Below, piece after piece: positions 11,838 through 64,000 of a DNA stretch of 64,000 nucleotides. This stretch comes from Psococerastis gibbosa (Eukaryota; Arthropoda; Insecta; Psocodea; Psocidae). The position numbers and the translations under genes are program-made. A model generated the notes under the pieces. The model saw only the letters and a list, made by a program, of their open reading frames with translations. It made no database searches and was not told where the DNA came from. Every line of letters begins with the position of its first letter. The stretch's first letter is position 1. The stretch covers positions 44,746,888 to 44,810,887 of the forward strand of contig OZ020488.1 of NCBI GenBank assembly GCA_963971405.1, given 5' to 3'.

Positions 11838-13067
11838 TGCTGAAGAAATCTTAGGAGATTATCAAACAGGTTTTCGACGAAACCGATCAACTACGGACCA
11901 ACTTTTCACTATCAGACAGATTCTCGAAAAATCCTGGGAATACGGTGGTGAGGTACACAACCTATTCGTCGATTTTTGCAAGGCCTACGACTCCATACAA
12001 CGTCAGAAGATGTGGGAAATCCTAGAGGAATTTGGCATCCCAAAAAAACTACGCACAATGGCGAAAATCTGTGTCGACGGATCACGAGCTAGGATCAAGG
12101 TGGATGGCAAGCTCTCAGACCCCTTCGAAGTACTCACGGGAGTAAAACAAGGAGATGGCCTATCACCATTATTATTCAACCTGGTCCTAGAAAAGGCGGT
12201 AAGACGCGCTATACAAACACCGGGCGGGATCGACATGGGAGTAAAGATTAAATTTCTCGGGTATGCTGACGATCTGAACGTCATGGCAGAGGCAAAAGAA
12301 GAAGCCGAGACCACAGTGAAAGCCCTTGAAGAAGAAGCTCTGAAGCTAGGTCTAAAAATAAACGTTGAAAAAACCAAGTACCTATTAGTGGGAAGAGACC
12401 AAGATACCTGCACAGGTCGCTTTGAAAGAGTGCAAGATTTCAAATACCTTGGGTCCATCATCACGTCCGACAACAAGATCAGTCAAGACGTTCTTAACAG
12501 AATTAAATCAGCCAATGTAGCTTTCTTCCAAACAAGAGCACTATTCTCGACTCGGATTCTATCATTGACAACAAAGATCAGGCTTTACAAGACGCTAATC
12601 CTACCTGTCCTTATATATGGTGGTGAAGCATGGGCCCTGACAAAGAAAGAATCAAGAGCGTTGGCTGTTTTCGAGAACAAGATGTTACGGAGAATATTCG
12701 GAAGAGTTTTTGAAAACAACAGTTGGAGAATCCGAACGAACGAAGAAATCCACCAACTCTTCGGCTCGCCAGACGTCACACAAATACTACGAAGCAGAAG
12801 GCTCCAGTGGATGGGACACGTCGTCCGTATGCCAGCGGATAGAACAGCACAAGCAGTATGGATGGCATGTCCCAACAGAAGAAGACCTTTGGGGCGTCCG
12901 AGACGACGCTATGGCGACCAGCTAAACGAAGATATACAGGAAGTTGGCCTTCGGGCCGATAATTGGTGTGATCTGGCGAAGGACAGGATCCGGTGGCGTA
13001 GTGTTGTGAATGCGGCCAAAAGTCCCCCAGGGCTGACAGCGCCAACTTAAGTCAAAAGTAAGTAAGT
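11838..13067 (+). mobile_element. RTE-clade non-LTR retrotransposon, 5'-truncated copy 1
   Basis: This fragment encodes the second half of an RTE-type reverse transcriptase, which copies its RNA directly at a nicked chromosomal target. The reading frame is open to the stop at 13050. Motifs in order: GFRRNRSTTDQ, FVDFCKAYDSI, GVKQGDGLSPLLFNL, catalytic YADD (FLGYADDLN), then the C-terminal LQWMGHVVRMP and GRPRRRYGDQL region. A very short 3' UTR ends in an AAGT-rich tail, as in RTE elements. A 12-base target duplication flanks it (CACTTTATACGT at 11826, CAATTTATACGT at 13068), one mismatch. The open frame runs upstream to 11782, but residues before the duplication come from flanking repeat. The endonuclease and first RT motifs are missing, so it is not autonomous. 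Copy 2 at 21 kb is nearly identical. Confidence 0.93.
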
Positions 13068-13461
13068 CAATTTATACGTAGTATAAGGAAAACTTTGTGA
13101 TGGTCGAAATTTTCGATTCCGGGATTTCAACGGGTTTACACGTTTTCAGGTCCCAGGAACCCAAAAAAAGTGGTTTTTAAGAAATGTCTGTCGCTCTGTG
13201 TGTCTGTATGTCTGTCTGTCTGTCTGTTCATCGATTTCCGGGCAAACTACTCGGCGATTTTAATGAAATTTGGCATGAAGGTTCACAAAAGTCATACCTC
13301 TAGACCATTTTTATTTTATTATTATTTATTATTTTATTTTGGGCTAACTCAATTTGGGGGATTTTTATTATCAGAAAACTCCAAAAAAACGTCTAAAAAA
13401 ATTATTTCTAAAAAATGGCTCCAACGATTTCTTTCAAATTCACATATATTGTAGTCGTTAT

Positions 13462-14426: not shown

Positions 14427-15540
14427 TTAATGTAGGCTAAGTATTATTGCTAGTATTATTATGCAATTATTTATATATTATTATACATTATATATGTCTA
14501 GGGGAGGGGGGCGGATTGGATAGTTTGAAAAAATTTAATATGATTAATTTTTAGTTACATGAAGAAAAATAGCCTAGCTTCGCCTATGGGGTTATAGCTG
14601 CAAACAATTGGCGCCTTTGCAAGGCTTAGGTACCTATGTGCCTAAGTTATATGCCAGGCAAAACAAACTGTCAGTTGTCAAAATCATAAGTCTGTAAGCA
14701 AAGCAAACTATGAGAATAAAAATATACTTTCAAATTTCACAAGGACGCGTCAGAGAAAGTAAAAAAACATTGCATATCAAACCAAAAAAAAAAAAAAAAA
14801 AAAAAAGGGCCCCCCCTTCCGAAATCGAAACCTGGGCACGGCCTTGAGAACACCTATATAAAAAAGCCGGTAAAACCTACACCTTAAACGGTTCGATCAC
14901 AACTTTTTACCCTATACTTAAAAGCAGTCAGTATAGCGTCGTGGGAGGACCCCGGGGCTCGAGAAGCCCTGCAGGTATCATGGGCAAATTGCAGGCTTGT
15001 GCGCCTTAAGGTCAGCGCCCGACGCCGCCGCCAGCGGCCTAACCATAGGTCTCGTAGCCACGAGGCGCCGCAAGGCCCTGCCCCGAACCTTTTCCCAAAC
15101 TTTCTCAGCACCCCTCGTAGCCCTATTATTTGCTAGGGCAGTAGTATATAGGCGAATTTGATGGTATATGATTCTCATGGCTTTCGATCTGCCCTTAAAG
15201 TTTAAGTCGTATAATTATCCCAAAAACAGATTATGCCCCTGCTAACTGTTTTGTCGTGAGAGTGTATAGTTTTTGGGGTGGGTGTGTTTTTTGGGGGTGG
15301 TTATACCGTATAATACTGAACTGTCGTTTGATGGATTTCGGCTGATTTAATATAGGGGAGTTTTTGCTTCTAGTTTGTGTTTATGATTTTTTTTCTAAAA
15401 GTAAAAATGGGTCTGTGGGTAAATTTTTTAATGCTAGTTTTATAGACTGAGTAGCAAAAACGAGTCAATAGAAGAAATATTTTATATTGGCTAGAGTATT
15501 ACATACTATTGTACATTAAATACTACAATAAAAAAACTTT
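14427..15540. other. No gene seen; GC-rich patch
   Basis: 14930-15120 is notably GC-rich (GACGCCGCCGCCAGCGGCC) with minus-strand frames of 66-75 codons, rich in Arg and unrecognised. Could be an old element. Confidence 0.4.
14740..14846 (+). mobile_element. Right half of a GGCCGTGCCCAGG-family MITE
   Basis: The right terminal repeat CCTGGGCACGGCCTTG is intact after a long poly-A and poly-C; no left end is visible. Confidence 0.5.
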
Positions 15541-19182: not shown

Positions 19183-19560
19183 CTTGCCCGTAGGCAAGTG
19201 GCAGCCCGAAATTTAATACTTTTTATTTTTTATTTAATTAACTAAGCATGTTCATGTTATTAAAGGTTTGGCTCATTAAAGTTGTAGAAGACTACTTCAT
19301 ACATCATATAATAAGGTATTTTTAGTTTTGGAAATTGTAGTTTTTTTTATAAAATCGATTATACGTGAAAAGTTATTGTTTATAAAACATTTGCATATTT
19401 CTGAAAAAAAAATCGAAGTAAAAAATTCCTTATTATATTTGCATGAAGTAGTCTTCTACAACTTTGATGAGCCAAATCATTAATAACATGCTTAGTTAGT
19501 TAAATAAAAAATAAAAAGTATTACATTTCGGGCTGCCAATTTCCTACGGGCTGTACACTC
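19183..19560 (+). mobile_element. Palindromic TTAA-type element, second subfamily
   Basis: Arms GGCAGCCCGAAAT, ACTTTTTATTTTTTATTTAA and GTTGTAGAAGACTACTTCAT recur inverted on the right. The right end CTGTACACTC is followed by TTAA (19561-19564); the left TTAA has decayed. Confidence 0.7.
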
Positions 19561-20038: not shown

Positions 20039-20330
20039 TATAACCGAAATTAGTGGATATGGAAAAAACTGGGCTTGGCGGGATTCAAACCCACGATTTA
20101 CGCCTAACCGGGGCTTGTGGTTCAGCGGTTAAGACGACGCCCCGGTTAGGCGTAGATCGTGGGATCAAATCCTGCCAAGCCCAGTTTTTTCCATTTCCTC
20201 TAATTTTGGTTACCCCCACAAGACGGAGGAACTCAATGAAGAGTCAAAGCCTCAAAGGCATAGGGATGTAGAAGCCAACGGGAAACCACTGCATTATCAT
20301 TTCCTAGTATACCAATCGTAAAAATGAATA
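20039..20330 (+). repeat. Fold-back tRNA-like SINE (family S2)
   Basis: A near-perfect inverted repeat: arms 20039-20114 and 20139-20213 with a 24-base loop. Each arm contains a B-box-like sequence (GGATTCAAACC reversed on the left, GGATCAAATCC on the right), and the loop holds the A-box-like GTGGTTCAGCGGTTAAG. The right half can fold as a tRNA-like cloverleaf (GGGCTTG/CAAGCCC acceptor, ACGCC/GGCGT anticodon stem). The right arm continues into the S2 body (GGAGGAACTCAATGAAGAGT). Confidence 0.7.
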
Positions 20331-21027
20331 AAAATATATTAATTTGTAACAAACGTGCTATTATACCTATACATTATTTATCATCAATATATATATTATA
20401 TACATCTTACAAGAAAAGGGAGGGGGGGCCGTGGATACTTTATCCTTCCGTGCATTCCTATCGGATATGCTTAGACAATGGTTAGAGGGAGCAATGGAGG
20501 ATTAGAATTAAAGTTGATTTTAATACAGAAGGGCCCCCCATGCAGCCCAGACCTGACTTCAGACATTTCAGAGTGGTCCCCTGCCTCCCTCTGCCTACGG
20601 CCCTGATATATAGGAAACTTTCTTACAGAATACACGTTTAAAATGTTTATAGCTTAACTTAACTTTCATAGTTTCATTCATTCATAGTCAACCGTCTTCC
20701 AATCCCCTTTTATGATGCAGTCATCACTCATCGCATCGTAAATACAGTAGATAACAGAATTTAACGTTAGATTCCGATCCATCCATCCGGCATTCATTAC
20801 GTCACATTACCACACATAAAAGTGTTTTCTTAAAAGATAAACAAAGTTTGTAGAAATCTACCAACTGATTTTACCACCCTATGGGCTAATTGAAGCAATG
20901 AAGCAGCTGTTTCAGGGTGACACATCCCAAGTGGCTGTAAATTGGCCAATTAATTAATTTAAAAATAAATAATTAATAAAATAATTCTCAAATTAAAATG
21001 AACACCTAATAAATTGACTTACTTGAC

Positions 21028-22425
21028 TTAAGTTGGCGCTGTCAGCCCTGGGGGACTTTTGGCCGCATTCACAACACTACGCCACCGGATCCTGTCCTTC
21101 GCCAGATCACACCAATTATCGGCCCGAAGGCCAACTTCCTGTATATCTTCGTTTAGCTGGTCGCCATAGCGTCGTCTCGGACGCCCCAAAGGTCTTCTTC
21201 TGTTGGGACATGCCATCCATACTGCTTGTGCTGTTCTATCCGCTGGCATACGGACGACGTGTCCCATCCACTGGAGCCTTCTGCTTCGTAGTATTTGTGT
21301 GACGTCTGGCGAGCCGAAGAGTTGGTGGATTTCTTCGTTCGTTCGGATTCTCCAACTGTTGTTTTCAAAAACTCTTCCGAATATTCTCCGTAACATCTTG
21401 TTCTCGAAAACAGCCAACGCTCTTGATTCTTTCTTTGTCAGGGCCCATGCTTCACCACCATATATAAGGACAGGTAGGATTAGCGTCTTGTAAAGCCTGA
21501 TCTTTGTTGTCCATGATAGAATCCGAGTCGAGAATAGTGCTCTTGTTTGGAAGAAAGCTACATTGGCTGATTTAATTCTGTTAAGAACGTCTTGACTGAT
21601 CTTGTTGTCGGACGTGATGATGGACCCAAGGTATTTGAAATCTTGCACTCTTTCAAAGCGACCTGTGCAGGTATCTTGGTCTCTTCCCACTAATAGGTAC
21701 TTGGTTTTTTCAACGTTTATTTTTAGACCTAGCTTCAGAGCTTCTTCTTCAAGGGCTTTCACTGTGGTCTCGGCTTCTTCTTTTGCCTCTGCCATGACGT
21801 TCAGATCGTCAGCATACCCGAGAAATTTAATCTTTACTCCCATGTCGATCCCGCCCGGTGTTTGTATAGCGCGTCTTACCGCCTTTTCTAGGACCAGGTT
21901 GAATAATAATGGTGATAGGCCATCTCCTTGTTTTACTCCCGTGAGTACTTCGAAGGGGTCTGAGAGCTTGCCATCCACCTTGATCCTAGCTCGTGATCCG
22001 TCGACACAGATTTTCGCCATTGTGCGTAGTTTTTTTGGGATGCCAAATTCCGCTAGGATTTCCCACATCTTCTGACGTTGTATGGAGTCGTAGGCCTTGC
22101 AAAAATCGACGAATAGGTTGTGTACCTCACCACCGTATTCCCAGGATTTTTCGAGAATCTGTCTGATAGTGAAAAGTTGGTCCGTAGTTGATCGGTTTCG
22201 TCGAAAACCTGTTTGATAATCTCCTAAGATTTCTTCAGCATACGGTGTGAGGCGATACAACAGCACGTTGGATAGTACTTTGTATCCTGTCGCCAGGAGT
22301 GATATCCCTCTATAGTTACAACATTGGGACTTGTCCCCCTTTTTAAAGACAGGAGTGATTATGGACTCTTTCCATTCGTCTGGGATCTTTTCCTTGTGCC
22401 AAATTTTTAGGAGTAAGCAATGCAT
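21028..22425 (-). pseudogene. RTE reverse transcriptase ORF
   Basis: A 465-codon open frame covering most of the reverse transcriptase: EWKESIITPVFKKGDKS, CCNYRGISLL, GFRRNRSTTDQ, FVDFCKAYDSI, KQGDGLSPLLFNL, YADD, then the C-terminal thumb and the LQWMGHVVRMP/GRPRRRYGDQL block. All catalytic RT motifs look intact. It lies in a different frame from the upstream endonuclease because of the deletion at the junction. In a working RTE the two parts form one protein, so this copy could give at most a separate RT. Confidence 0.9.
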
Positions 22426-29155: not shown

Positions 29156-29561
29156 TTACCGCCTCATAATGTCCTCAATCGTGAAGCCCAGCTGCTTCTT
29201 TGGCGCTTCTGCCTCACTACACGACCTGGCCGTCGTGAGATCCAGAAGACCCACTGCGTCAACTCCTTCAGCACCCAAGCAAGCCTCGCACTCACTTTGT
29301 ATCATTGCATCGGGTTTCTTCAGGTCGCAACTTCTCTGAAGAGGCTTCGTACAGCCGATGCACTCGAAGGGTTTGGCGTCGGAGTGCGTGAGAAGGTGCG
29401 TCTTGAGGTTGGATCTCTGGTTGAAGCTGCGGCTACAGACGGGGCACTTGTGGGGCGACTCTTCCATGTGCAGGATCTTGTGGACGGCCAATGTGCGGGA
29501 CTGGCAAAACCCTTTGCCACATTCAGTGCATTTGAATGGTTTCTCTTTGCTGTGGATATAC
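29156..29561 (-). CDS. odd: Odd-skipped family transcription factor, exon 3 (zinc fingers 2-5 and eh1 motif)
   Basis: Last coding exon, starting right after a TTTCAG acceptor and ending at TAA (29156-29158). It completes finger 2 (YIH) and encodes finger 3 (about 214-236, [14 protein letters not shown]) and finger 4 (242-264, [14 protein letters not shown]). A fifth finger-like segment from 270 has Cys272 and Cys275, but Pro288 and Ile292 stand where the two His should be, so it should not bind zinc. The last residues, about 331-337 (FTIEDIM), match the eh1-like motif by which Odd family proteins recruit the Groucho co-repressor; that role is known for the family and inferred here. The low-complexity Ala/Glu/Asp stretch 295-326 is unrecognised. 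The exon is preceded by a 500-bp intron (29562-30061) that holds a LINE relic. Confidence 0.93.
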
Positions 29562-30061
29562 CTGAAATAGAGGAGACAATAGTCGTGTGTTAATTGGATA
29601 AACCATTGTGGTTGAGGTCAGGAAAACTTCGGTCAGACGGCTGGCTGGGACATGTGGCACGCATGCCAGAGAGCTTTAGAAGAAGGCTACGATTGCAGAA
29701 CGACTCGACGTCGAGAGAGGTCTGAGAGAGTCTGAGATTGGTATCGATCTTATTGGGGACTGCCGCGATGCTAAATGGAGGTACCTGACCTGTAGTGCCA
29801 CGGGGTATTTTAATTTTTATATAAAAGGTTTTTTATGGACCAGTAACTATGCAATGGTGGTCCTAAATCGGCTGTCTTCACACCGTAAGGTGGACTTAGT
29901 ACGCATGGCAATACAATATAGCAATAGCAATTGGAACTGCAAACGAGGCAAGGGTTCAGTGTTAACTCGCGTAAGCTGCCTGTAAGACCAATCCTGGAGA
30001 TGTTGGAAGGCACATATTACTAATATACAGTAGTGCGGCAAATTATTACGAAAGGGCTTAC
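29562..30061 (-). other. Odd-skipped intron 2 with a LINE relic
   Basis: A GTAAGC donor and a TTTCAG acceptor bound exactly 500 bases. On the plus strand at about 29620-29800 it contains a decayed reverse-transcriptase C-terminus: W-L-G-H-V-A-R-M-P-E is legible, as in the RTE copies elsewhere in the window. The remaining intron sequence shows nothing recognisable. Confidence 0.8.
29620..29800 (+). pseudogene. RTE-like LINE relic inside odd intron 2
   Basis: The plus strand reads ...GWLGHVARMPES.. followed by frame-shifted remnants (SILLGTAAMLNG), equivalent to the C-terminal region of the 12-kb RTE. It is heavily decayed, with no intact frame. Confidence 0.55.
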
Positions 30062-30617
30062 CTATGGTCCCTTAGATGGTCCTGCCTTCGGAACGCCTTA
30101 TTACAGATGTCACAGCTGTAGGGCCGTTCGTCTGTGTGGGTACGCTCATGAATAAGAAGATTGTAAGACTTCGTAAAGTGCCGATTGCAGTATTTACAGA
30201 TAAACTGCTTCTTCGGCCTCGTCGACGTCCTAGGCCCAGGCATCCCGGGCGGTCGGCTCAGCTTCCCTGGCGGAGCATACGGCGCCCGCGCAGCTAGTAG
30301 GAGTGGGCTACGTTCGGGTATGTTGTAAAAGCTCCGCAGGAAGTTATTCACGTACATGGCGGCGGGGAAGGAAGAAGGATAGCAAGGCAGCCCGTAGACG
30401 CTAGGGCTAAGAAGGAGTTTGGAGTTGTAGGTGGCAGGATTGAACGGGCGGAAAGCCGAGTGTTGTCCAGCAGGGTCTAAGAGCCTGTGGGGGAAGGTTT
30501 CTCTAGGGATCGCAAGGTGAAGGGGTCCGGGGGGTTCCGTTCGTTTCGGGGAGTGCGGAGGTGTCGTCAGCCGAGGGGAATTGTCTCTTGAGTCGGACTT
30601 CATGTTGTCTATAGGAT
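30062..30617 (-). CDS. odd: Odd-skipped family transcription factor, exon 2 (zinc fingers 1-2)
   Basis: Nuclear DNA-binding repressor of the odd-skipped (Odd/Sob/Bowl/Osr) family, which patterns segments, legs and gut in arthropods. Seen: a polypyrimidine tract and CAG acceptor at 30618-30620, and a GTAAGC donor just after 30062. In the 339-residue model this exon encodes residues 20-205. It begins with a Ser/Pro-rich linker ([16 protein letters not shown]), followed by finger 1 (about 158-180; Cys160, Cys163, His176, His180) and most of finger 2 (Cys188, Cys191, His204). The strings [20 protein letters not shown] and [11 protein letters not shown] are family hallmarks. The donor splits an Arg codon inside finger 2, and exon 3 supplies the missing His208. 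An in-frame ATG at 30603 is an alternative start. The family call is very secure; which paralogue (odd, sob, bowl) is not decidable here. Confidence 0.93.
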
Positions 30618-30850
30618 CTGAAAAAAAAAGACATTTTGTTAAGAGCTTCATGAATATTCATTGACACATGAGAAGATCAAAATGGGAACCTCATGGAAAG
30701 GTGCAATAGCCCAATTAGGGCCCATATACTGTTAACTCATGGAGTTGAAGACCTAATTAAACTAATTAAAATCTCAATGATATTAGCCAGAGAAAAAGTA
30801 AGACCCGTAACCAGGGGCGTTGCGTGCACATTGAAAACAAGGCTTATATT

Positions 30851-31094
30851 CATGGCCGTGCCCAGGGAGTGGTCCAAGGGGTGCGGACCCCCCCCCCCCG
30901 AAATAAAAGGGCTTTTCACAAATTAATTTTTTTACTTTTATATTTTAGTGACGCAATTTATCATTTTTTGTAAACCTGTATTATTTGAAGAATTGGAATA
31001 AATTTATTTGAATTGTAACAGAATTGGATAGAACAGACTTTCATTAATAACATACGTAAAAACATTTTTGGACAAAAACCTGGGCACCGCGCTG
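30851..31094 (+). mobile_element. hAT-type MITE, family CAAGGCCGTGCCC, in odd intron 1
   Basis: Target duplication CTTATATT/CTTATGTT; ends CATGGCCGTGCCCAGG and CCTGGGCACCGCGCTG; poly-C at 30887-30899. Confidence 0.88.
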
Positions 31095-31543
31095 CTTATG
31101 TTGTTTTCTTAGCCGAAAGCTTAGCTGTTTCGGTGGTGGACACCATTAGTGTAAAGTTGTTTTATTATATTTATTTATAATGAATTTATAAGAAGTGACT
31201 AGGGAATCTCATTAGCATTAGCCATCGTTTTTCAGAATTTTGTAAGAAAATACGCGAGACAAAGCAACTTCAACGGTTCGCTGAAAATGAGGAAAAAATA
31301 GAACACTTGGAGTTAGGCAAGGCCACAAGTAGTGTGACGGCAGACCGAGAACAACACTCGAAGAAAGCATAATTATGGATACATTAATTAATTAAAATAA
31401 ATTAAATTATTGAATAATAAAAGATATTGACAAGGGTTGAAAACTATAAAAGATATTAAAATTTCGGATCTCTAAATTGGCCGGACTAAATTTTAAATAT
31501 TTAAGACCATTTTTCATCATTTTTCGATTTTTATTTATTATTA

Positions 31544-32402
31544 TTGCTTTCCAATTTATACGTAGTATAAGGAAAGCTTTGTGACGGTCGAAATTTTCGA
31601 TTCCGAGATTTCAACGGATTTACTCGTTTTGAGGTCCCAGGAACCCAAAAAGTGGTTTTTACGAAATGTCTGTCTGTCTGTCTGTCTGTGCGTCGATTTC
31701 CGGGCAAACTACTCGGTCGATCTTGATGAAATTCGGCATGTAGGTTTACAAAAATCATACCTCAGAATAATTCTTTTTATTTGGGGCTATCTCAATTTGA
31801 GGGGGTTTTATTTTGAAAAAACTCCAAAAAAACGTCTAAAAAAATTATTTCTCAAAAATGGCTCCAACGATTTCTTTTAAATTCACATATTTTGTAGTCG
31901 TTATTCATATTAACGAAATGCGTGGGGTTGCTTGCCCCTTGATAGGTTCCTTCTGGGGGTAAAAAAATAAAAATAACTAAATTTTAATGAGAAATGACTA
32001 AAAAATAATTTTTCTGCGAAACCTTTCTATCGATGATTTCTACCTTCAGGCATGTTTTAGGTGTTTAGGTGTTAAATTGAGTAACGAAACCGGACAGGTT
32101 GCTTTCCCAGAAAAGTATTTGGTTTTGTAAAAAAAAATGTTTTTTTGAAGAAATGATAGAAAATTCACGCTCAAATGCATTGCGTGCCCTGCCAGTATTG
32201 CTGTGTGGTAATGTGTTGGTCTGACCTATCTAGAATTTACCTCACCTCCAGTGACGTCAGGTGGACAACCCCCCCCCCCCCCCCCCCGAGATATCGGAAA
32301 TTTAACCATAGCAAAATTATTTACCATGAAATTACTCATTTTCTCTATCTACTAATTTTGATAAATTGGAAAGCATGTTCGAGTTAACTCGGACCGGTTC
32401 TT
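31544..32402 (+). repeat. Family G repeat, complete copy, in odd intron 1
   Basis: Same layout as the 23.7-kb copy, with a shorter GTCT run (31669-31690) and a poly-C tract at about 32270-32287. The 3' hairpin has one base changed (GAGTTAACTC). Confidence 0.88.
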
Positions 32403-33589
32403 TTTCTTTTATTTTGCACAGTTGTGTAAATTGTTTTTTACACCATTGGAAACGGAAAGTAGAGATTTCAACGAACCAAACGCCCACCAATTAAAAAAAA
32501 TACTAAATTTTGATGTGAGATTTTTCGATTGTAAATTAGGATGCTTCCTCCATATTTAGTCAAATTTAGGTGAAAAAATTACAGTGTATTTAGAACATAA
32601 AAAGGTTTCACCAAATTTCGTAAAAAAAATTTTTTTTTGTAAAAGTTATAATTAAAAAACCAAAACCTTGGTTTTTTGCATTTTTCACATAAATTTTGAG
32701 GCTACGTGAAAAACGTGTAATTACTAAAGTTGTAGATCTTCTTATTACCTATATTTTTGTTTTTTAACGTTTTTCCATAGGACTTGTAGTTTTGCCGGAA
32801 ATCAAAATATACCGTATTTAACCCTTAAAAACCCACTCCCACCTACTTCCCGAACTCAGATCACCCCGTAATTTATTTTTCTTTTAATTTCTGCCATTCC
32901 TTCAGTTTCCAAAGGGTTTCATACTGCTATAATTTGATGTCGTTTCAAAAATTATCATAAGTGAATAAGTTAATATCAAACGCCATAGTTGGCAAGATCG
33001 TAGAGTTTATGGAATGGACTCTAGGCTATGCCATCTCACCGTGTGTTCGCGGCACTAAGAGGCAAGACAATTTTTTTTGTCGAAAATATTTGGCTTCCCC
33101 GAAATAAATCCTGGATGCGTGCTTGTCCACAATATTGAATTACTGTACGAGCGGAAACTGCTATACAATATGGACAGTCCTCGTTCCAATTTTTTTTGCA
33201 CGCCGTGCCAATCGTAAATCAATTATCTACTGTTGAAAATTTGTAGGCAGGTAGTGGCTATTTCCCTGCTATTTACGAAAGACCCCCTACCTACGTTGGT
33301 TGAAGCTGGCACTAATTTATGGTGTGTATTGTCCGGTAATGAGCCAACGAACCTTTGCAGGGGGCTTGGGTCGGTTTAAAAAAAAAAAAAAAAAAAAAAA
33401 TGCAACAAACTTTCCCGTTTCCATTGTATCTTCATTTGGTAAATTTTGAACACAGGTACGTTTGTGAACGAATGCTATGCTTCAAAATGCTTTTTTTAGC
33501 TCATACAGTATGTTCTTTTTGCAATAAATATGACGAGACTATTATTATATGGCAGTATTATATGGAGCATATAACACTGACTTTTTAAA

Positions 33590-33700
33590 TTAACTTTGGT
33601 TGAAGAGGCAGCCACCTCGTTATAACTGAAATTAGAGGATAGAGAAAAGTTGGACTTGGCGGGATTCGAACCCACGACGACGACGCCCCGGAGACTATTA
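33590..33700 (-). repeat. S2 SINE half copy
   Basis: GTTGAAGAGGCAGCCACCTC, CTTGGCGGGATTCGAACC and ACGACGCCCCGG match the left arm of the 20.1-kb fold-back; box B reads GGTTCGAATCC on the minus strand. Confidence 0.65.
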
Positions 33701-33759
33701 TATAGACCCCGCCATGGGCATAGCTGAAATTGAATCAAGAGGGGGGACGTAAAAAATTG

Positions 33760-34002
33760 GCACCCCAAACTTAAATACTTTCCATTTCATTAACTCAGCA
33801 AGTTATTACAAATTTGGCTCATTTAAGCTGTAAAAGACTACATCGTGCATCATATAATCTGGTATTTTTACTATTCGGTTTTGTCGTCTTTCCAAAAAAA
33901 TATAGTCCCCACTGGTTTTAATAAAACTATGTTTTATAAACCTAATTATACCTCATTATATGATGCATGAAGTAGTCTTCTACAACTTCAGGAGCCAAAT
34001 CT
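33760..34002 (+). mobile_element. Older palindromic element interrupted by 34007-34401
   Basis: GGCACCCCAAACTT, TTTGGCTCATTTAAGCTGTA and, inverted, GTCTTCTACAACTTCAGGAG mirror the arms of the inner element, but with many changes. Confidence 0.65.
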
Positions 34003-34006
34003 TTAA

Positions 34007-34401
34007 GAGGACATGCTACGTAGAAAATGAGCACCCCAAATTTTGTTGTCTTTATTGACTTTTTATTTTTTATTTAATTAACAAAGCAAGTCATTAAAAT
34101 TTTGGCTCATGGAAGTTGTAGAAGACTGCTTCATGCATCATGTAATAGGAAATATTAAATTTTTGATACCTTAGTTCTTTCATAAATACCAGAACGGACT
34201 ATAATTATGCGTATTCTGGGATTTTTGTAAGGCCTACAAAACCGAAAAGTAAAAATACCCGATTATATGATGCACAAAGCAGTCTTCTACAACTTCCATG
34301 AGCCAAATCTTTAATCACTTGCTTTATTAAATAAATAAAAAATAAAAAGTCCATAAAAACAACAAATTTTGGGGTGCTCATTTTCTACGTAGCATGTCCT
34401 C
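34007..34401 (+). mobile_element. Palindromic TTAA-bordered element
   Basis: Near-perfect long inverted repeats (GAGGACATGCTACGTAGAAA to its complement) of about 130 bases or more per arm, with TTAA at 34003-34006 and 34402-34405. TTAA duplication is the piggyBac signature; the ends do not show the usual piggyBac CCC start. It is inserted in a diverged relative that fills 33760-34002. Confidence 0.82.
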
Positions 34402-34681
34402 TTAATGTTAACCCGTAAATATTTTTTTTTTTTGGGGGGAGGGGTTGTGTCTCCCCTGTACATCTCTGGCTACGCTGGTCGCCAATGGATCAGGCTCAAA
34501 CAGGGTTTAAACTGAATGGCAGTTCTTTTCTTATTCTGTTTTGTATTACGTATTGTATGTACTTGTAAGTTTTTTTGTCCTACTAGTGTGCCCTCTATTC
34601 ATAGTTTTCCTACTGTACCACTTATAAAGGCGTTTTTGTCTTTTTCTTCTATATGTAATATTAAGTCTCTATTAATAATAC

Positions 34682-34920
34682 CCCGGATTTGGTTGGTGGG
34701 GGGGGGGGGGGGTGTCCAATTTTTTTTACGTATTTTATCAATGAAAGTCCATTTTATCCAGTGTTTCAAATAAATACAATCCAATTTTCCAAACAATACA
34801 GGCATACAAAAAATGATAAATTGTGTCACTAAAATGTGAAATTAAATTTAAATTTGTATAAAGCCCTTTAATTTCGGGGTTGTCCGGACCCCTTGGACCA
34901 CCCCCCTGGGCACGGCCATG
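34682..34920 (+). mobile_element. hAT-type MITE, family CAAGGCCGTGCCC, left end eroded
   Basis: Perfect 8-base duplication AATAATAC (34674-34681, 34921-34928). The right end CCTGGGCACGGCCATG is intact; about ten bases of the left terminal repeat are missing. A poly-G tract follows at 34697-34713. Confidence 0.85.
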
Positions 34921-35127
34921 AATAATACAATCTGTTTTAGGGTTAGCATGAAAACAAGACTTTTGTTGTTCGCCTTTTGGTATTTCAATACAGTAGTTTC
35001 AATTCAATGCCATTATTATAATTAATTCTATTTCTTAGTGGGGATTCTTTTCCGAGGATTTGTTCTTTTTTTATGACAATGTCTTTTAATTTAGATATTC
35101 TCAATTAATCCCACTTTTTAATTTAAT

Positions 35128-35410
35128 GCTTCTTTTATCGAAGATTGGCTACCATCATGGCAATTTAGGCCTTGGAGACTGCTGCTCTGAAAAGGAAGGC
35201 CGTGCTCTTCCCAAACCACTGCGTCAGGTTTTTCAACCACGATGTTATTCTGCCCCTCCGCCTTATCTTATTTACATGCAAAATGCCATACGTTTTGTTC
35301 CTCATAATATTGCCGAATTATGTTAATTTCCGTTTCTTAACCGTCAGCATGTTTGGCTTCTGTATCTATTCGCTGCTGGACTTCAGCATTGGGGGCAATC
35401 GGAATTAAAT
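35128..35410 (-). pseudogene. LINE C-terminal relic with AMMIANLR-type end
   Basis: Homologous by eye to 17262-17545: both contain GGAGACTGCTGCT, TTTTTCAACCA and GATGTT.CT, and both end at TCGAAGATTGGCNATCATCATGGCAA or a close variant. Decayed, non-coding today. Confidence 0.55.
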
Positions 35411-35722
35411 CCCCAATGTTTATCGTATACAATCTCTTCTAGTTCATCTATATTATTCCGCTACGTTTCGTGAAAATTGAAAATAATGTCTATTCGTACC
35501 CCAAACCACGCATTCCTCAGTAAGAACCTCAGGAATGTGCCAAACATATCCTTTGGCTTATTTTAATGCTGCAGATTGAATTAAATTATGCTTAAAAATG
35601 TTCCTTCAATGACTGATCCGATCCTGCGAATTTTGGTCCACTATAATATAATTCACCAAATTCGTCCGCGTCTGTCCGTACGTGAATCAATTTTTTTTAT
35701 AACATTATATGCTATATACAGT

Positions 35723-35926
35723 CAAGGCCGTACCCAGGTTTTGGTTGGGGGGGGGGCAAAGAAATGTTAACGTCATTTATTAATTTAAAAAGTCCATTCT
35801 ATCCAGTGTTCAAACTCAATTAGATTTATTCCAATTCTTCAAACAATACAGGTTTACATGTAAAAAAAATATTTCTGGGGGGGGGGGGTCCGGACCCCTT
35901 GCACCACCCCCCTGGGCACGGCTATG
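35723..35926 (+). mobile_element. hAT-type MITE, family CAAGGCCGTGCCC
   Basis: ATACAGT repeated on both sides (35716-35722, 35927-35933); ends CAAGGCCGTACCCAGG and CCTGGGCACGGCTATG; two poly-G tracts. Confidence 0.87.
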
Positions 35927-35989
35927 ATACAGTCACATTGACCAATGTTGGAGACACGAAGATTTTTCGCATAGTACAAACAATTCAAT

Positions 35990-36680
35990 CAGTGGCGGCT
36001 CGTGGTGTATCAAAATGGTGGGGCAACGAATTGTAATAAAGTAATAGCATATAACTTACCACTACTTGAATATCAAATAGATTCTTCGGCATTTCGATGT
36101 CGCAAACAAGTCTATAACTAGCTGTTTATATTTTTGTAATATTTGTTTACATTACCCTGCCTGGCCGTTGGGCAGAACCTGACTTCCCTAGTCAGAAACT
36201 CTTCTTTGAAAAATTTTATAATAATCATCAGTCATGACAAAATAGTGAAACTCTTCTCAAAAATAACTCTTATAATTATGATTTAAAAAAAATACCAATA
36301 TTCAACGATATTATTAATACGAAACATTTAAAGTCATTTTTGGGGCGCTGCCCCGCTGCCCATGTATAAATGCATATGGCATGAATTGCATTGCAAGGTC
36401 CATAAGAGAAAAGTTGTGTACACCTTTTCAATGGTGCGAACGATCTTCTTAACTTATGCCTCACTCGGTTGCCATGGCGACCCGGGGCTAAATTGAAAAT
36501 TGCCCCAAGTTGCCCAGAGCACGCACATAGCATAGCCGAATTGTAGCAGTTGCATTTTTCTTCAAAATAGTATATTATTATTTTATTATTATTATTATTA
36601 TTAAAAGGAAATTGCTTTGTTTGCCTGTAAAATTATGGGAGGGCTGTAGCCCCAGTGCCCTTATGGATGAGCCGCCACTG
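35990..36680 (+). mobile_element. hAT-type MITE, family CAGTGGCGGCTCG, in odd intron 1
   Basis: Perfect duplication AATTCAAT (35982-35989, 36681-36688); ends CAGTGGCGGCTCGTGG and GGATGAGCCGCCACTG. 691 bases, no convincing coding frame. Confidence 0.93.
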
Positions 36681-36687
36681 AATTCAA

Positions 36688-36830
36688 TGAATGTATCGGA
36701 ATAACCTCTTCAGTCGCCTCTGCAGGTAATACCTGTGTCGAGTTACCGCGACAGGTCACCGATCGTATGATGTGAAGAGACTTGCACAAGTACGAACAAG
36801 CTACCATTATGCCATCGAAGCACATATCTA
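36688..36830 (-). repeat. Interspersed repeat D, minus strand
   Basis: AACCTCTTCAGTCGCCTCTG, GACAGGTCACCGATCGTATG and AAGTACGAACAAGCTACCAT are the complements of the 10.5-kb copy. It begins right at the edge of the 35.99-kb MITE. Confidence 0.65.
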
Positions 36831-37392
36831 TGACATATAAAGTTATTTACTTACATTCCATTTCCCATGTCGAATGTTTGCATTGGCAGGTATAGGAAGT
36901 AGGAACTTATTGCTTGTAACGAATTTTGTGGCAGAAACATGTAAGAGGAATGCGAAGATGACAATCCTAGCTTAAAATATATAGTACTTTACCAATAGGG
37001 TCTTTGCCTACGACTTTATACGCATTTTAATTCGACTGAACGCCGGGGTATGTTAACAAGACCTTTGCCGGTGCTATTGCTATAAAATGTTAAAAATGTA
37101 AGTTACATCGAAATGTAGAGTAAAATTTCTTCTACTTAGTGACATCTCATTTATATTTCCTGTTAAGTTTTTTAATCGAAAAGTTTGCTTTCTTAACATA
37201 GGCTAAGATATTTATATATAAGTACCTAAATATTGATATGATTTGATTTTGGCCAGATTCATCCCACATCCCAAAAGCCAAACATTATTAACAATTTCGG
37301 AAATGATGCAGAAAAGTATCTAGACGAACCACAACAACCAACAGTATGAAAAATGTTAGAAAAAATAAACAATCAATAAAATAAAACCTTAC

Positions 37393-37450
37393 CTTGGCCG
37401 AATTGTGTCGGAACTCGATCAAAAGAATACGTAAGGATATCAGTTGCCAT
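37393..37450 (-). CDS. odd: Odd-skipped family transcription factor, proposed coding exon 1
   Basis: Proposed first coding exon. Seen: the first ATG downstream of a promoter-like block opens a frame of 19 codons plus one base with no stop, ending in a consensus donor (CCAAG then GTAAGG). The single leftover base joins the two-base start of exon 2 (30617) to make an Asp codon, so the phase is exact. No earlier ATG is visible in the inferred 5' leader. The 19-residue peptide (MATDILTYSF...) has no domain I recognise. Inference: this is the N-terminus of the odd-skipped protein, separated from the finger exons by a repeat-filled intron of about 6.8 kb. The alternative is that translation starts at the ATG at 30603 in exon 2 and this exon belongs to something else. 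Only a transcript can decide. Confidence 0.5.
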
Positions 37451-37647
37451 GAAGAAGTCCAAAACAAAAACACAATAGTCCTCGTCAATAAATAACGGAT
37501 AGATAAATAAACTCGTATGTGGGCAGAAAATATGTGTAACACAAGTGGCTAAAGTATGTACTATTTGCGCGGGGCAAAACGCTAGAAGTACACTGTAGTA
37601 GTGGAAGCAAGCGACTGTTTGGAAGCTGGCTGCGAAGGTAGCAGCTT

Positions 37648-37690
37648 GGTATATAGAGGGGCGGAGCTTGCCTCCTATTGGCTAGCCCGA
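37648..37690 (-). promoter_or_regulatory. Candidate promoter of the odd-skipped gene (CCAAT, GC box, TATA)
   Basis: Read on the minus strand, this short block has GCCAATAGG (about 37672-37682), then GCTCCGCCCCTC (about 37656-37667), then CTATATACC (about 37648-37656). The spacing suits a TATA promoter, with a start expected near 37620. About 170 bases downstream is the first ATG, at 37450. The surrounding 37.6-37.8 kb is more GC-rich than its flanks and free of the window's repeats. Assignment to the odd gene is inference from strand, position and splice phase. Confidence 0.5.
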
Positions 37691-37699
37691 ATTCAGAAG

Positions 37700-40258
37700 T
37701 TCTTTGTGATGGCGGCTCTATGGGAGCCTTTGTCCCTTCGTGAACTTTCGAAAGGCTACACAGATGCTAGAGATAGTGCCTGTGGGCGATTTGGTTCCAC
37801 GCATGTCTGACCTCTGTGAACCTGTAGGTATCAGGCTGGGGAAGTCGGAATTATAGTGGTCTGCTGTTAGGTTTCAGGATTAGGGGTTAAAGGTTCACGT
37901 GAAATTTGAGGTTTTCAGGTGTTCTGTATTCATGGCTAGTACGTGGATGCAGGTTTCAGATAGTTTTTAGGCTTAAGTTTTCTTTGTGTTGTGGGAGTTT
38001 AGGCAGTTTTTATCTTGTTTGAAAGAAAACGGGATGATATATTGTGTCTGAACCGGTGAAAGGCGGACCACGCGCTCGCTTAGAGCGGCCAATTTTAGGG
38101 GCGGCACAATTTTGAGGATAAATAACCTATTTTTTGGTGTAGAGCTCACAAAACTAAAAGTTTAACCCATAATTTTGAGTTATTTAAACTGCCACTAATT
38201 AGCGACAGCGGCATGTGCCGATGACTTTTCCAGATAGTAATTACTTTACGCGTGTCCATGGAAACACACAAATGTACTGACCAAAATCGAGCAACTTGGA
38301 CGGCTTTGCCGTTTGCTTCATGCAGGTCCAGACAGTCAGGACATACATTGGGTAATCTTAGTGAAATTTGTCAGGTATAGGGTGGTGGCAAGCTTCACTG
38401 CCCAGAAGCGGCAGATACTTAAATGCGTCCCTGGTCTGAACTTGGGACTGGACTCACTGTTGTCGTATTTCTGTATAGGATTGTAAAAACATTTATGGCA
38501 CGATAACCAATAGAGGGTGAGGTCTGTGGAGAACGAGTAATTTTTGTTTTGTCAGGTTTCTAGTCTGGATTTGAGTGAATAGAATTCGCAGGATTATTTT
38601 GTCATGCTCCTTTTGTTCAATATAAAAGGAACTGGACGATTCTAATCGATTCTAATAGCGTCGACATAAATATAAGAATATGTCTACCTAAAACACTAGT
38701 TGGCACTTGGTACTTGGAGCATACTGTTTTATGGCTGCTATAAACGTGGTACATTTACGAAAAAGACAAAAATAAGTTGGAAGCCTTTGGGATGTGCGGA
38801 CTGTGCGGTGTTCACCTAAAACACCCTATACATTTAGGTTTAATGGTAGTAACCCGGGTATGTTTTAAAAGGAATGTTTTTATTATGCGGTCATTGTGGG
38901 CAAATTAATTTACAGATGGATGCTAAATAATAATATCATGAAGGGATCAGTGATCACATAACAAATTAATAGTCGAAGAGATGCTCCACAGGATACACGA
39001 AGGAAGGTCATTAATTACCCTAATTTCTTTATCGGACATAAAGGGTTTCTTAACACCACTGACGCCACCATCAATGCCTGGCAGAAGACCTCAAACAAGT
39101 TGTGAGAGCCTATATACATGTACCCAAGAGAACGGTCCAAGGTCAAAGATGAGTGCAGGGGAAGATAGAGAGAGCTTTGCTCAATATTTTATACAATGAC
39201 GGATCCATAAATTATAAGATAGCTTAAAAAAAATTAATTGAATAAAACTCAACTTTCCAACAAATTACCTTTAAAACTTACAACATGCGGCCCGGGGTCA
39301 GTGGTGTAAATAACACCCCGCAACCCCCGCGGCGCGAGGGGCGCAGCATTGCTGGGGGCGCACTTCAGTTCCCAAAAATAATAAGATAATTTAGAAATCT
39401 ACGTAATTAATAAAAATATAAAATATCAATTTGTTATCCATGTTGACTATAGTTATGAAATTAGGAACTTCATCTCATTTAAAACTAAAAATTATCTTTC
39501 TCGCCAATCCTGCGCTTCACCAGTGGCAGCAGAATGCACTAGGACTTAGGTAACAACAAAACCAGACAGCGGCTGGTACGTTTTCCATTATTAAGCAACT
39601 GGAGCTAAATTTTTGGAAGATTGTTGAAAAGAACCCATTGAGGACTGCCAGCAGTTTATTGCCTTCCTATTTAGTAGTAGTTAGTACAAAGAAAGCTATT
39701 TGATGGTCAAAATTTTCGATTTTGAGATTTCAGTGGTTTTACAGGACACCAATAAAGTGACATCCGTCCATGCACAAGATAGACAAGAGTGGAGAAGGAG
39801 ATTGAAACATTCGCTGCAAACCAATTGATGGACTCCAGAAGAAGATAGGATCTAAGCCCTGCAGGAAAATTCCTGGTTCCGGGCCTGCTGTAGGTAATTC
39901 TGGAATATTTGAAAATGGCAACGGCAGCCCAGCATTGCTAATAGAGGCCTAAGGACTGTTAGAAGATCCTGATTATTTTTGACTGCTTTTCTTTTGAGAT
40001 GATGTGGTACGACAACCGGCAACAGCGTTAAGTGTTTAGACCTGAGGCCTGGTAGAGGGTCCTCTACTTTGACTACTACACTATTCGGGGGTGTTCTAGT
40101 CAGGAACACGTCTGGCAGCCTCGTTAGGTAAGGTGCTTGTTAGGGTTATGTGGATCCAGGCCCGATGGCAATTCTATCCTTTTCTATTCGAGCCTCGAAT
40201 CTTACCCCTTCCGCTTCATATTCCAGTACCTTGCCCCCCACTGGAACTTAAATGTGCA
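37700..40258. other. Upstream of odd exon 1; no gene seen
   Basis: Mostly unique-looking sequence. A GGCGCGAGGGGCGCAGC patch at 39330 and a small family G fragment at 39686 are the only recognisable items. It is a natural place for upstream control elements of the odd gene, but none is demonstrable. Confidence 0.4.
39686..39742 (+). repeat. Family G repeat, small diverged fragment
   Basis: GAAAGCTATTTGATGGTCAA, ATTTTCGATTTTGAGATTTC and GGTTTTACAGG match the repeat's 5' block. Confidence 0.5.
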
Positions 40259-48469: not shown

Positions 48470-48750
48470 TTATTTTATACGTTAGTTTAAGGAATGCTGT
48501 GTGATGGTCAAAATGTTCTATTTCGAGATAACATCAGATTTGCACGTTTTAAGTTCCTAGTGCCTGCCCACCGGCTACCTGTCTTTCAGTCTGTTCATTG
48601 ATTTGTAGCATTGTATACGCAAACAACTGGATTTTGACAAAGTTCTGCATGTTGGTCCCCAAAAACTATGTCTAGGCACCGTTATTTTTATTTTAAGCTA
48701 CTTCAAATTTGGGGGTTAATCCCCAAAACTTAAAAAAGTATTTTTTTTAC
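48470..48750 (+). repeat. Family G repeat, diverged fragment
   Basis: TGTGATGGTCAAAATGTTCT, TTTGCACGTTTTAAG and CTGTCTTTCAGTCTGT are recognisable but strongly diverged. This shows that the family has old and young members. Confidence 0.6.
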
Positions 48751-59940: not shown

Positions 59941-62816
59941 CCACGAGGGTTTCGTTATCAGTGCATAGGCCTATACCTAACTCCAAACTAGTTCATAAAA
60001 TTCATTTATGGAATATATGGGATGTGTTTTTAATATGTACTCAACAGTTTTTCCAAATTGGGGCAGATTTTCTGTCTGGATTGACCTCGGTAGGGAGTTG
60101 TATAACTTAATGGCCAAATTTGGGAAACTACTCTTTGTTTTTGTTAATCTGCACTTAGGGATTTGTAGGTGATGAGCTGTTCTAGTGGGGTAATTGTGAA
60201 CATCACATCTGTTGCTGAAGTTAACTAGATTTTCCTTTATATATATAAGGCTATTGAGTACATATTGTGCATATATTGTAAGAATACCCAGGGTGGAAAA
60301 AATAGGCCTACAAGGTCTCTAGATCTGCTGTTAGTTATTATTCGCAACACACGCTTCTGTAGTAGAGCAGGAGCGTGCCCCCAGAGTAAAATACCATAAT
60401 TTATATGGGAGTGGAATAATCCATAATATGTATTCAGAAGATGAGTTGAAGTAACTTGATTCCTCAACTTTCTGAAGAGGTATGTAATACGACATAACTT
60501 TTTACATATTTGATCAATATGGATATTCCAACTTAAAGTTGGATCTAAATGAAAGCCCAGGAACTTAACCGCTCTGTTGTTGTCTGGATATGCCTTTAGT
60601 GTCAAAACAAGATGCTGGGTTTTGTCTGCATTTAGTTGGAACTTATTATTAATGAACCAATCAGCTGTTTTTTCTAGAAGGGGGCGTCCTTCAGCAACAG
60701 CACCTTCAGGGGACGAGGCTCTTTTCTTCAGTGTGGTGTCATCCGCAAAGAGTATAGTGCTGTTTTTAAGATCATTTATCATTACGAGGAATAGTAGAGG
60801 ACCCAGGACAGAGCCCTGAGGAACCCCATGTCTAACAGACTTAAGAGTGGAAGGTGCTCCCGCAACGGTTACTAACTGAGTTCTGTTTTCTAGATAAGAC
60901 GTCAGTATTGTTAGTACTACGTTGCGTACACCATAGCGTTGTAGTTTACCTAATAATATTGGATGATATACACAGTCAAATGCTTTGCTTAGGTCGCAGA
61001 AAGATAGGCCCAAGGAGTCGCCTGCCTCGAAGCAGTCTAGAGCCTCCTGAACCATTTCTAAAGCAGCACTGAAAGTGGATTTACCTCTCCTGAAACCATG
61101 TTGACTTTCATTGAACAATTCATTTTTTTCAAAGTAGTTCACTAGTTGGATACACATAATTTTTTCTAGTACTTTACCGATAACTGGCACAATTGATATC
61201 GGTCTATAGTTTCCTGGAGAGTATACATCTCCTTTCTTATGTATGGGCACGGTTCTGGAAATCTTAAGCTCATCAGGGAAGATTCCCTCTTTCAGACTGA
61301 TATTTAATAGAGTAGTAAGAGGCGTGGCAATAGTATCAATGATACTTTTAAGTATTAGCGACGAAAACCCATATACGTCTGCACTCTGAGACGTCTTTAG
61401 GCCATTTACTATTTTGGTTACATCCTGACAACTTACAGGTGCCCAAGTGGAAAAAGATACATCTGTACTGGTAACTCCAAGTACAGGGTCCGTATTACTG
61501 GGTGGGAGGCTGTTTATTATTTTATCTGCCGCCTCAGAGAAATAGTTATTTAGTTCATCAGGGCTGATAGGACATAATGGAGTCTGTCGCTTTTTGGCCT
61601 GGGCGTTAACAAGGGCCCACATGGCTTTACATGGGTTTGCGGCTTTATTTATTGTTTCTACGTTATAATTTTTCTTAGCCTGCGTTAATTTGTATTTATA
61701 AATACTTTTAACTCGCAGGTATTTTCTATATAACGCTGATTTGGAATCAGTATCTAGGGTCTCTTTAAACCTATAGTTCAACGTTAGCAGATATTCCTTA
61801 ATATTTCTGAGGTCTTGGGTATACCATGGATTTTTTGGCGGCTTATGATTTTTCTTTGTGACTAACTGAGGCGTGTGTATGTGTTTTTGGGGGAAGGTTT
61901 TATTAAAAATGTCGGTTAATACATTGAAAAAAGAAGTGAACTTACTAACAGCAGTTGGATGAGCATTTTCTATTACAATATCCCAGTTTATTTCATTGAG
62001 TCGCGAGATAAGAATATGAAAATTATTTTCGTCTACTTTCCTGGTTGTAGATATGTAATTGGCACACCAAGAAGGAACGCGTAACTCTGGTTTAAAGAAG
62101 TTTAATGACATTTCCACAGCTTTATGGTCTGCAACAGTAGGATCAGATACAGAAACAGTAAACTCAGTATGATTTGTAAAAATGTTGTCTATGCAATTAT
62201 CCAGTCTTGTCGGCTCACGATTCGTCAAAAAAAGATTATAACTTCGGCATAAATTTGTGAGATCAATCTCGTGTCTACTGCAAGTGTTAAAGTGTACGTT
62301 AAAATCCCCCCCTAGGATTATAGTCTTGTGCTTACCACTTTGTGATGAGAGGAATGAGTCTAAGTTGCTTAAAAAAATTGGAAAAGATCCATTAGGTGAC
62401 CTATACAGAGAAACAACCAGGGTTGACAAATCGGTTAATTCAATGGCTGACATTTCTAAGTTTTGCTCTGAACAAAAGCGGTTGGCGTCCAATTTCCTGA
62501 CACATAGGTCGCTGCTTGCATAAATGGCCGTTCCACCTCTATCCTTTTCACTCCTGCACCATGCAGTGATTAGCTGCAGATTTGAAGTGGTTTGGTAGAA
62601 ATCACACTCTTCACTCTTGAGCCAATGCTCACTAATACACAGCAGATTGTGGTTTTTGTTGCTTAAGTAATTTTCTACCAGATCAAATTTTGTTCTAAGG
62701 CATTGGACATTCAAGAAAACTAGGGTTAGTTTGGAATTAGGATTTAAATTGCGTTCTAGTCCCAAGATTTGTTGCGCAGTAGGCTTAATGAGTTTTTTAA
62801 AAACGCAGCAAATTTT
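59815..62816 (-). mobile_element. CR1/L2/Jockey-type LINE, nearly complete, one frameshift
   Basis: A non-LTR retrotransposon with joined endonuclease and reverse transcriptase on the minus strand. The main frame is open from about 62816 (after an in-frame TAG at 62817-62819) to 60237. Near 60313-60317 a single missing base shifts the frame. The continuation, with the expected C-terminal domain, runs open to a TAG at 59977-59979. It is followed by a short 3' UTR and tandem AT-rich repeats (about 59808-59940), which fit the simple-repeat tails of CR1/L2 elements. No target duplication was found by eye. The clade within the CR1/L2/Jockey group is uncertain. Confidence 0.88.
60237..62765 (-). 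pseudogene. LINE endonuclease-reverse transcriptase ORF2 (842 codons)
   Basis: Endonuclease motifs at the N-terminus: FLNVQCLRTKFD, SEHWL, ILGGDFNVHF, LDNCIDNIFTN, and VADHKAVEMSL with the catalytic Asp-His. A linker follows (NPWYTQDLRNIKEYL). Reverse transcriptase motifs: ADVYGFSSLILK, TVPIHKKGDVYSPGNYRPIS, QHGFRRGKSTFSA, FCDLSKAFDCVYH, VPQGSVLGPLLFLVMINDL, the catalytic FADD (ILFADDTTL), and LNADKTQHLVL, then KFLGFHLDPTLSWNIHI. All key catalytic residues appear present. The apparent start at 62765 is a TTG; the frame is open a further 50 bases upstream, so the true start is unknown. The last dozen residues (after S-R-S-R-D) are read out of frame because of the base lost near 60315. Confidence 0.93.
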
Positions 62817-63253: not shown

Positions 63254-64000
63254 ATGAGGCCCATGCCTCTAATGGCTATTAACACAGCAGGCAATTGAAG
63301 TCCAACAAGCCCTTTTGTTAAATATACATTTGGGACCCATCAGGCTCACTAAGGTACAGAGGGGCCCATGCCAGCTTGGCTCCAGGTTGCTTAACAAGCA
63401 TGGTCTAAAAAGGGAAGACATTAGCCCTAACGCGATCAAAAGCAACTCCAAATGGGTTGATTTTAAAACTTGCTGTCTTTTACTAAGTTATTTTTCGACA
63501 AACCTGCTGACATATTTCACCAATTCTTTAAACTTGCATTTATTTAATAAATTATTTTTAATGCCGAAAACCGTACCTACTTGCTGGTTGAAAATGACTG
63601 ATTAAAGCATTGTATTGTACTTTATTGTACCATTTGTTTATTCAACCCAGACCTTCCATTTCATAGTCCTTATTTCTCTTTAAGCTTATTTATTAATTTA
63701 TTAGCTATTTAAGAAGGACAACAACAATATTGAAGCGCCATCAGAGCGAAGTTCTCTAACAAATGTACAATTCTTGACCTGAAATATTGACAAATACTGA
63801 TAGCTGTGCCAGCAAAGTCTGTTTGCCGGGGATTAAACTAGTTTCTGCAGCGAGAGAGGAACCCCAGCAGGAAACAATGGAGAGCAAATTAATTTGGCTG
63901 CCTGGGGGAGCTTGTGTTTACAAAGTGAGCTAAGTCAGCTAACCGGATTAATTGCCGTACGGAAATGGCTCATTGGCGGCGCATACCCTCTCGCAAATTA
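63254..64000. other. No gene seen
   Basis: The last 150 bases lack repeats and are more balanced in composition, with AATTAATTTGG and GGATTAATTGCC motifs of the homeodomain-core type. Function unknown. Confidence 0.35.

What the first reader, a model, noticed from the sequence alone, without database searches (positions are those of the whole stretch)
37393..37690. A distant promoter and first exon for the odd-skipped gene
A CCAAT/GC-box/TATA block, a first ATG, an open 19-codon frame and a GTAAGG donor lie 6.8 kb upstream of the finger exons on the same strand. The codon phase at the junction is exact (1 base + 2 bases, giving Asp). An automatic annotation starting at 30603 would miss this N-terminus.
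Basis: partly seen in the sequence, partly recalled or inferred. Interest (0 to 1): 0.7.

Follow-up and report, generated by a model that had tools for sequence, protein, structure and literature searches.

The report
Distant first exon of odd-skipped gene
A developmental zinc-finger gene of the odd-skipped family very probably starts with a short coding exon and promoter nearly 7 kb upstream of its main exons, which is an ordinary gene layout and mainly useful for correcting the gene's annotation.

Summary
On the minus strand, CCAAT (37681-37677), GC box (37664-37658), TATATA (37655-37650), an ATG at 37450 (the only ATG in 37720-37300) and 19 open codons lead to AAG|GTAAGG at 37393/37392. Joined to 30617 and then 29561, this gives an unbroken 339-aa frame with four canonical C2H2 fingers ending [10 protein letters not shown]; the Bowl peptide printed in PMC11368183 ends GFSIEDIMRR.

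The exon-2 acceptor has a branch-point match 21 nt upstream and a pyrimidine tract, so exon 2 is very probably internal. TATA, no earlier ATG, phase-1 frame and strong donor together average 0.02 per 33-kb shuffle; 0 of 400 shuffles also had CCAAT. The donor alone is unremarkable, and shuffles underrate such matches in this AT-rich sequence.

No RNA or orthologous N-terminus could be consulted: 14 of 15 genome-search runs met a busy machine, the other failed on coordinates, and 4 of 4 contig scans found no relative. The junction is inferred, not shown. An ORF caller might start at an in-frame ATG at 30651 inside the intron rather than at 30603. This is an ordinary gene-model refinement.

The parts
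37650..37681 (-). Core/proximal promoter elements: CCAAT 37681-37677, GC box CCGCCCC 37664-37658, TATATA 37655-37650
   Evidence: sequence; TATAWA with CCAAT and GC box within 80 bp upstream is found here and at three overlapping TATA matches in an AT-rich stretch at 14475-14494 on the minus strand, none on the plus strand; mean 0.17 per 64-kb shuffle over 200 shuffles
37393..37627 (-). Predicted exon 1: transcription start inferred at about 37627-37616, 5' UTR without ATG, coding 37450-37393 (19 codons + 1 base)
   Evidence: start site inferred from TATA spacing only
37387..37395 (-). 5' splice site AAG|GTAAGG (exon end 37393)
   Evidence: best-scoring GT of 1779 on the minus strand of 30618-64000; 76% of shuffles hold one as good
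30618..37392 (-). Predicted intron 1, 6775 bp, 41.5% covered by repeats shared within the window
30618..30642 (-). 3' splice site: TTAAC branch-point match (A 30639), pyrimidine tract, CAG
   Evidence: one of 3 complete 3' splice sites on the minus strand (0 on the plus strand) by the strict scan; another is the exon-3 acceptor
30062..30617 (-). Exon 2 (556 nt): N-terminal region and zinc fingers 1-2; in-frame ATG at 30603 (residue 25)
29562..30061 (-). Intron 2, 500 bp, phase 2 within the Arg codon of [13 protein letters not shown]
29156..29561 (-). Exon 3 (406 nt with stop): end of finger 2, fingers 3 and 4, degenerate finger 5, C-terminal [10 protein letters not shown]

Best explanation
It is the real promoter and first coding exon of an odd-skipped family gene, of insect type, on the minus strand. 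RNA polymerase II starts around 37627-37616, about 30-40 nt downstream of the TATA box; the 6775-bp first intron is removed between 37393 and 30617; translation starts at ATG 37450, giving a 339-residue C2H2 zinc-finger protein with a C-terminal EH1-like (Groucho-recruiting) motif. Shown: the elements, the open frame, the exact phase, the splice-site motifs, the family fingers and the C-terminal match. Inferred: the organism group, the start site, the use of this donor with this acceptor, the use of this ATG, and repression through Groucho.
For: Continuous 339-aa frame across both junctions. The exon-2 acceptor is one of only 3 strict 3' splice sites on the minus strand (0 on the plus strand); a second of the 3 is the exon-3 acceptor required by the finger array. 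30 shuffles average 2.5 per 64 kb, so one exactly before this exon is unlikely by chance. Ten ATGs lie between 30964 and 30634, upstream of ATG 30603, which argues against an unspliced proximal leader. Best donor of 1779; TATA, first ATG, phase-1 frame and donor jointly 0.02 per shuffle, 0 of 400 with CCAAT added. An earlier scan that required an Inr gave the same single place, with 0 of 200 shuffles at the 11-bit donor. The exon-1 block has no repeat copy in the window and sits in a 2.84-kb unique island, 36814-39654. No stop-to-stop ORF of 120 aa or more lies on the minus strand between 30657 and 52333, so no other evident gene competes for the promoter.
Against: No transcript and no orthologous N-terminus. 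The donor score alone is expected by chance (76% of shuffles), and frame plus phase alone about 1 in 8. Real sequence exceeds shuffles in TATA + phase-1 candidates generally (4 against 0.31 at 8 bits), so the shuffle figures flatter the block. TATA-Inr spacing is poor for the best Inr match. My acceptor matrix ranks the exon-2 acceptor only moderately (189 of 3485 minus-strand AGs score as high). ATG 37450 has T at -3, a weak context, while ATG 30603 has A at -3. Bombyx sob is reported to have two exons (PMC4704060, passages), so an upstream coding exon is not universal in the family. Three weaker TATA + phase-1 candidates exist at 48650, 47255 and 44679, and one TATA/Inr/ATG/donor candidate found without a phase requirement at 36983-36855 (donor 8.1).
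Confidence: 0.72

Rival explanations
1. Exon 2 is spliced to a different, possibly non-coding, first exon elsewhere upstream, and translation starts at ATG 30603 (315 aa).
For: The acceptor only requires some upstream exon; ATG 30603 has the better context; three other TATA + phase-1 candidates exist and one of another phase at 36983-36855; non-coding first exons were not enumerated, and the window ends at 64000.
Against: The 37393 donor is the strongest in the region, and the other candidates have weaker donors; the three phase-1 ones have no CCAAT.
Confidence: 0.13
2. Exon 1 is spliced as proposed, but ATG 37450 is largely passed over by leaky scanning and the main protein starts at Met25 (30603), so exon 1 is mostly leader.
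For: T at -3 of ATG 37450, A at -3 of ATG 30603; both are in the same frame.
Against: First ATG of the leader, G at +4, in frame and open.
Confidence: 0.09
3. Transcription begins close to exon 2 (about 30.7-31.2 kb) and the block at 37.4-37.7 kb is chance or serves a non-coding RNA.
For: TATA matches at 31190, 31179 and 30942; TATA/CCAAT/GC-box blocks alone occur 0.17 times per 64-kb shuffle and once more in this window.
Against: Ten ATGs between 30964 and 30634 lie in such a leader or part of it, and a complete 3' splice site would be left without a purpose.
Confidence: 0.06

Closest known systems
Odd-skipped family (Drosophila Odd, Sob, Bowl; vertebrate OSR1/OSR2)
   Same: Odd-type finger array; the OSR2 structure 2ee8 aligns over 93 residues in one stretch. 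C-terminal GF[S/T]IEDIMRR as in the Bowl peptide APPRRTGFSIEDIMRR (PMC11368183, passage). Bowl and Odd have C-terminal EH1-like motifs (PMC1310626, passages; an eh1 motif in Bowl also in PMC5402979, passages).
   Different: Four canonical fingers, with a fifth that keeps two Cys but lacks both His; Bowl and Bombyx Sob are described with five (passages). A distant 19-codon first exon; Bombyx sob has two exons in all.
Drumstick (Drm)
   Same: Member of the same gene family (PMC9632033, PMC4704060, passages)
   Different: Drm is 88 residues with one C2H2 and one C2HC finger (PMC11368183, passage); the window protein is 339 residues with four C2H2 fingers.
knirps-family small 5' coding exon in insects (analogy of layout)
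   Different: A different gene family; no homology implied.

Membership tests
Odd-skipped family (odd/sob/bowl/OSR) | Tandem C2H2 fingers of the odd type | tested here: met
   Four canonical C..C-12-H-3-H fingers at residues 160-264; Pfam zf-C2H2; OSR2 2ee8, one stretch over 93 residues, 184 bits
Odd-skipped family (odd/sob/bowl/OSR) | C-terminal EH1-like motif in insect Odd/Bowl | tested here: met
   [10 protein letters not shown] before the stop; Bowl peptide ends GFSIEDIMRR; EH1-like at the C-terminal ends of bowl and odd
Odd-skipped family (odd/sob/bowl/OSR) | Assignment to odd, sob or bowl by phylogeny with insect orthologues | not tested
   No insect orthologue could be fetched: searches found none; the genome search unanswered
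Bowl subfamily | Five C2H2 fingers | tested here: not met
   Four canonical fingers; the fifth (from residue 272) lacks His ligands; five fingers for Bowl from PMC11368183 (passage)
Spliced first coding exon | Phase-matched donor and acceptor with open frame | tested here: met
Spliced first coding exon | RNA evidence of the junction | not testable with these tools
   no RNA data available
Spliced first coding exon | Conservation of the encoded N-terminus in orthologues | tested here: inconclusive
   no orthologue found in the reachable collections; three N-terminal 7-mers matched no paper in the library

The most novel reading that the evidence does not exclude
The gene makes two N-terminal isoforms by leaky scanning (339 and 315 residues), and the 19-residue exon-1 peptide is a lineage-specific addition to an otherwise conserved segmentation repressor, acquired with a promoter that now lies nearly 7 kb away after intron growth through transposon insertion.
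Probability: 0.12. Interest if true: 0.35.

Novelty: new member of a known kind. Interest (0 to 1): 0.2.

Why it matters
If right, the gene model of this developmental transcription factor gains its true N-terminus and, more usefully, its real promoter. Enhancer, reporter or gene-editing work placed next to 30.6 kb would miss the promoter by almost 7 kb. It does not change understanding of the family.

Tried and rejected
Donor strength alone as evidence was rejected: 76% of 400 shuffles hold one as good. Frame and phase alone were rejected as weak. An Inr-based promoter scan allowed up to 41 nt from TATA to the start, too generous; its result (one phase-1 place, 0 to 0.07 per shuffle by donor threshold, 200 shuffles) was set behind a test without Inr. 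The acceptor scan used thresholds chosen after seeing the exon-2 acceptor; looser thresholds give counts close to shuffles (32 and 28 on the minus and plus strands against 31 at 9 of 12 pyrimidines; 13 and 7 against 11 at 10 of 12; 30 shuffles), so only its exact place beside the exon is informative. My simple acceptor weight matrix ranked the exon-2 acceptor only moderately (189 of 3485 minus-strand AGs score as high). Searches for relatives in viral contigs and genome contigs found none; the plasmid search gave 3 records, at 41-46% identity to the fingers, two of them annotated as C2H2 zinc-finger proteins. Six short peptide strings searched in the paper library matched one paper, through the C-terminal motif; 3 of the 6 were N-terminal and none of those matched. 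Passages of PMC3058060, PMC2889900, PMC3941026, PMC3807789 and PMC7178596 gave no exon structure or N-terminal sequence of odd genes; PMC9890238 had no matching passage. Structure prediction was not run: without relatives it would say little about a 19-residue terminus.

Full report
What is in the sequence. Reading the minus strand, 37681-37650 holds CCAAT, CCGCCCC and TATATA; the next ATG after it is at 37450, and it is the only ATG between 37720 and 37300. The frame from it is open for 19 codons and reaches AAG|GTAAGG, exon end 37393. Downstream, exon 2 starts at 30617 after TTTTTTTTTCAG and ends at 30062 (TAG|GTAAGC); exon 3 runs from 29561 to the stop at 29156. Joined, the three pieces give 339 codons and a stop without interruption, and the G + AT junction gives Asp20.

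What gene it is. The protein has four canonical C2H2 fingers at residues 160-264 (Pfam). OSR2 (2ee8) aligns over 93 residues in one stretch; three chains of ZNF568 rank above it, but only by summing several finger matches. The protein ends in [10 protein letters not shown]; the Bowl antiserum peptide printed in PMC11368183 is APPRRTGFSIEDIMRR (passage), and PMC1310626 places EH1-like motifs at the C-terminal ends of bowl and odd (passage). So it is an odd-skipped family gene and complete at its 3' coding end. A fifth finger keeps two cysteines but lacks both histidines. Bowl and Bombyx Sob are described with five fingers (passages), so an odd-type paralogue is a fair guess, but no phylogeny was possible. 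The organism was not identified; insect is an inference from the family and the C-terminal match.

Is exon 2 an internal exon? The sequence before 30617 has a branch-point match (TTAAC, A 21 nt from the end of the AG), a pyrimidine tract and no intervening AG. A strict scan for such sites finds 3 on the minus strand and 0 on the plus strand of the 64-kb window; two of the three are this acceptor and the exon-3 acceptor. Thirty shuffles average 2.5 per 64 kb, so the count is not unusual but the position is: chance would seldom place one 14 nt before this ATG. The thresholds were chosen after seeing the exon-2 site. My simple acceptor matrix rates the site less highly (189 of 3485 minus-strand AGs reach its score). 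Ten ATGs lie between 30964 and 30634, so a leader transcribed straight through would be rich in upstream starts. An upstream exon is therefore very likely.

Is the upstream exon the one at 37393? The donor is the best-scoring of 1779 minus-strand GTs between 30618 and 64000 (weights recalled, not trained on this species), although 76% of shuffles hold one as good. The joint pattern of TATA, no ATG between, first-ATG frame in phase 1 and donor of 11 bits or more averages 0.02 per shuffle of the 33-kb region; with CCAAT within 80 bp it was met in 0 of 400 shuffles. In the real sequence it is met once, here. Three weaker candidates at 48650, 47255 and 44679 have TATA but lower donors and no CCAAT, and one TATA/Inr/ATG/donor set that fails the phase test lies at 36983-36855. 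The features were chosen after seeing the block, and the real sequence carries more TATA + phase-1 candidates than shuffles do (4 against 0.31 at donors of 8 bits or more), so the figures flatter it. The block lies in a 2.84-kb island (36814-39654) without repeats shared in the window, while 41.5% of the intron is such repeats. No other stop-to-stop ORF of 120 aa or more lies on the minus strand from 30657 to 52333.

Is exon 1 coding? Of 572 ATGs in the upstream region, 211 open 19 or more codons, and one phase in three would fit, so frame plus phase alone is about 1 in 8. But if the splice is real, the first ATG of the leader is in frame, and ribosomes should use it in part at least. Its context has T at -3 and G at +4; ATG 30603 has A at -3. 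Two forms, 339 and 315 residues, are possible.

Points against or unsettled. The best Inr-like match (A 37616) is 39 nt from the first T of the TATA (sequence), longer than usual; A 37627 fits the spacing but is a weak Inr. The promoter stretch shows no CpG enrichment. Bombyx sob has two exons (PMC4704060, passages), so an upstream coding exon is not general in the family. No relative was found in viral contigs or genome contigs, collections of viral and prokaryote contigs that should hold few insect genes; the search of the window's own genome did not complete (14 busy calls).

Verdict. Very probably a real promoter and first coding exon of an odd-skipped family gene: ordinary eukaryotic gene anatomy, worth fixing in an annotation. 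Long first introns and short first coding exons are common in developmental genes (recalled general knowledge). Interest is low.

Noticed in passing
11838-13075 (+) and 21009-22240 (-): Two non-LTR retrotransposon copies 99.35% identical over 1238 bp in opposite orientation, both RVT_1: a recent insertion.
   Followed up: partly
60237-62816 (-): A single 859-codon stop-to-stop frame with endonuclease and reverse transcriptase domains, so a largely intact non-LTR element, apparently of another type.
   Followed up: partly
29315-29362 (-), residues 272-287 of the odd protein: Fifth zinc finger keeps the two Cys and an RSCDLKK stretch but has no His at the ligand places that follow: apparent decay of the last finger.
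   Followed up: partly
30651 (-): In-frame ATG inside the end of intron 1 that would give a false N-terminus [18 protein letters not shown] in ORF-based annotation.
   Followed up: yes
19186-19551: A near-palindrome: the stretch matches its own reverse complement at 77%, perhaps a foldback element.
   Followed up: no
20111-20183 (+): tRNA-Thr (GGT), found by ARAGORN; Rfam also calls a tRNA there.
   Followed up: no
14475-14494 (-): A second CCAAT/GC-box/TATA cluster in AT-rich sequence, next to a dispersed repeat; looks like chance.
   Followed up: partly
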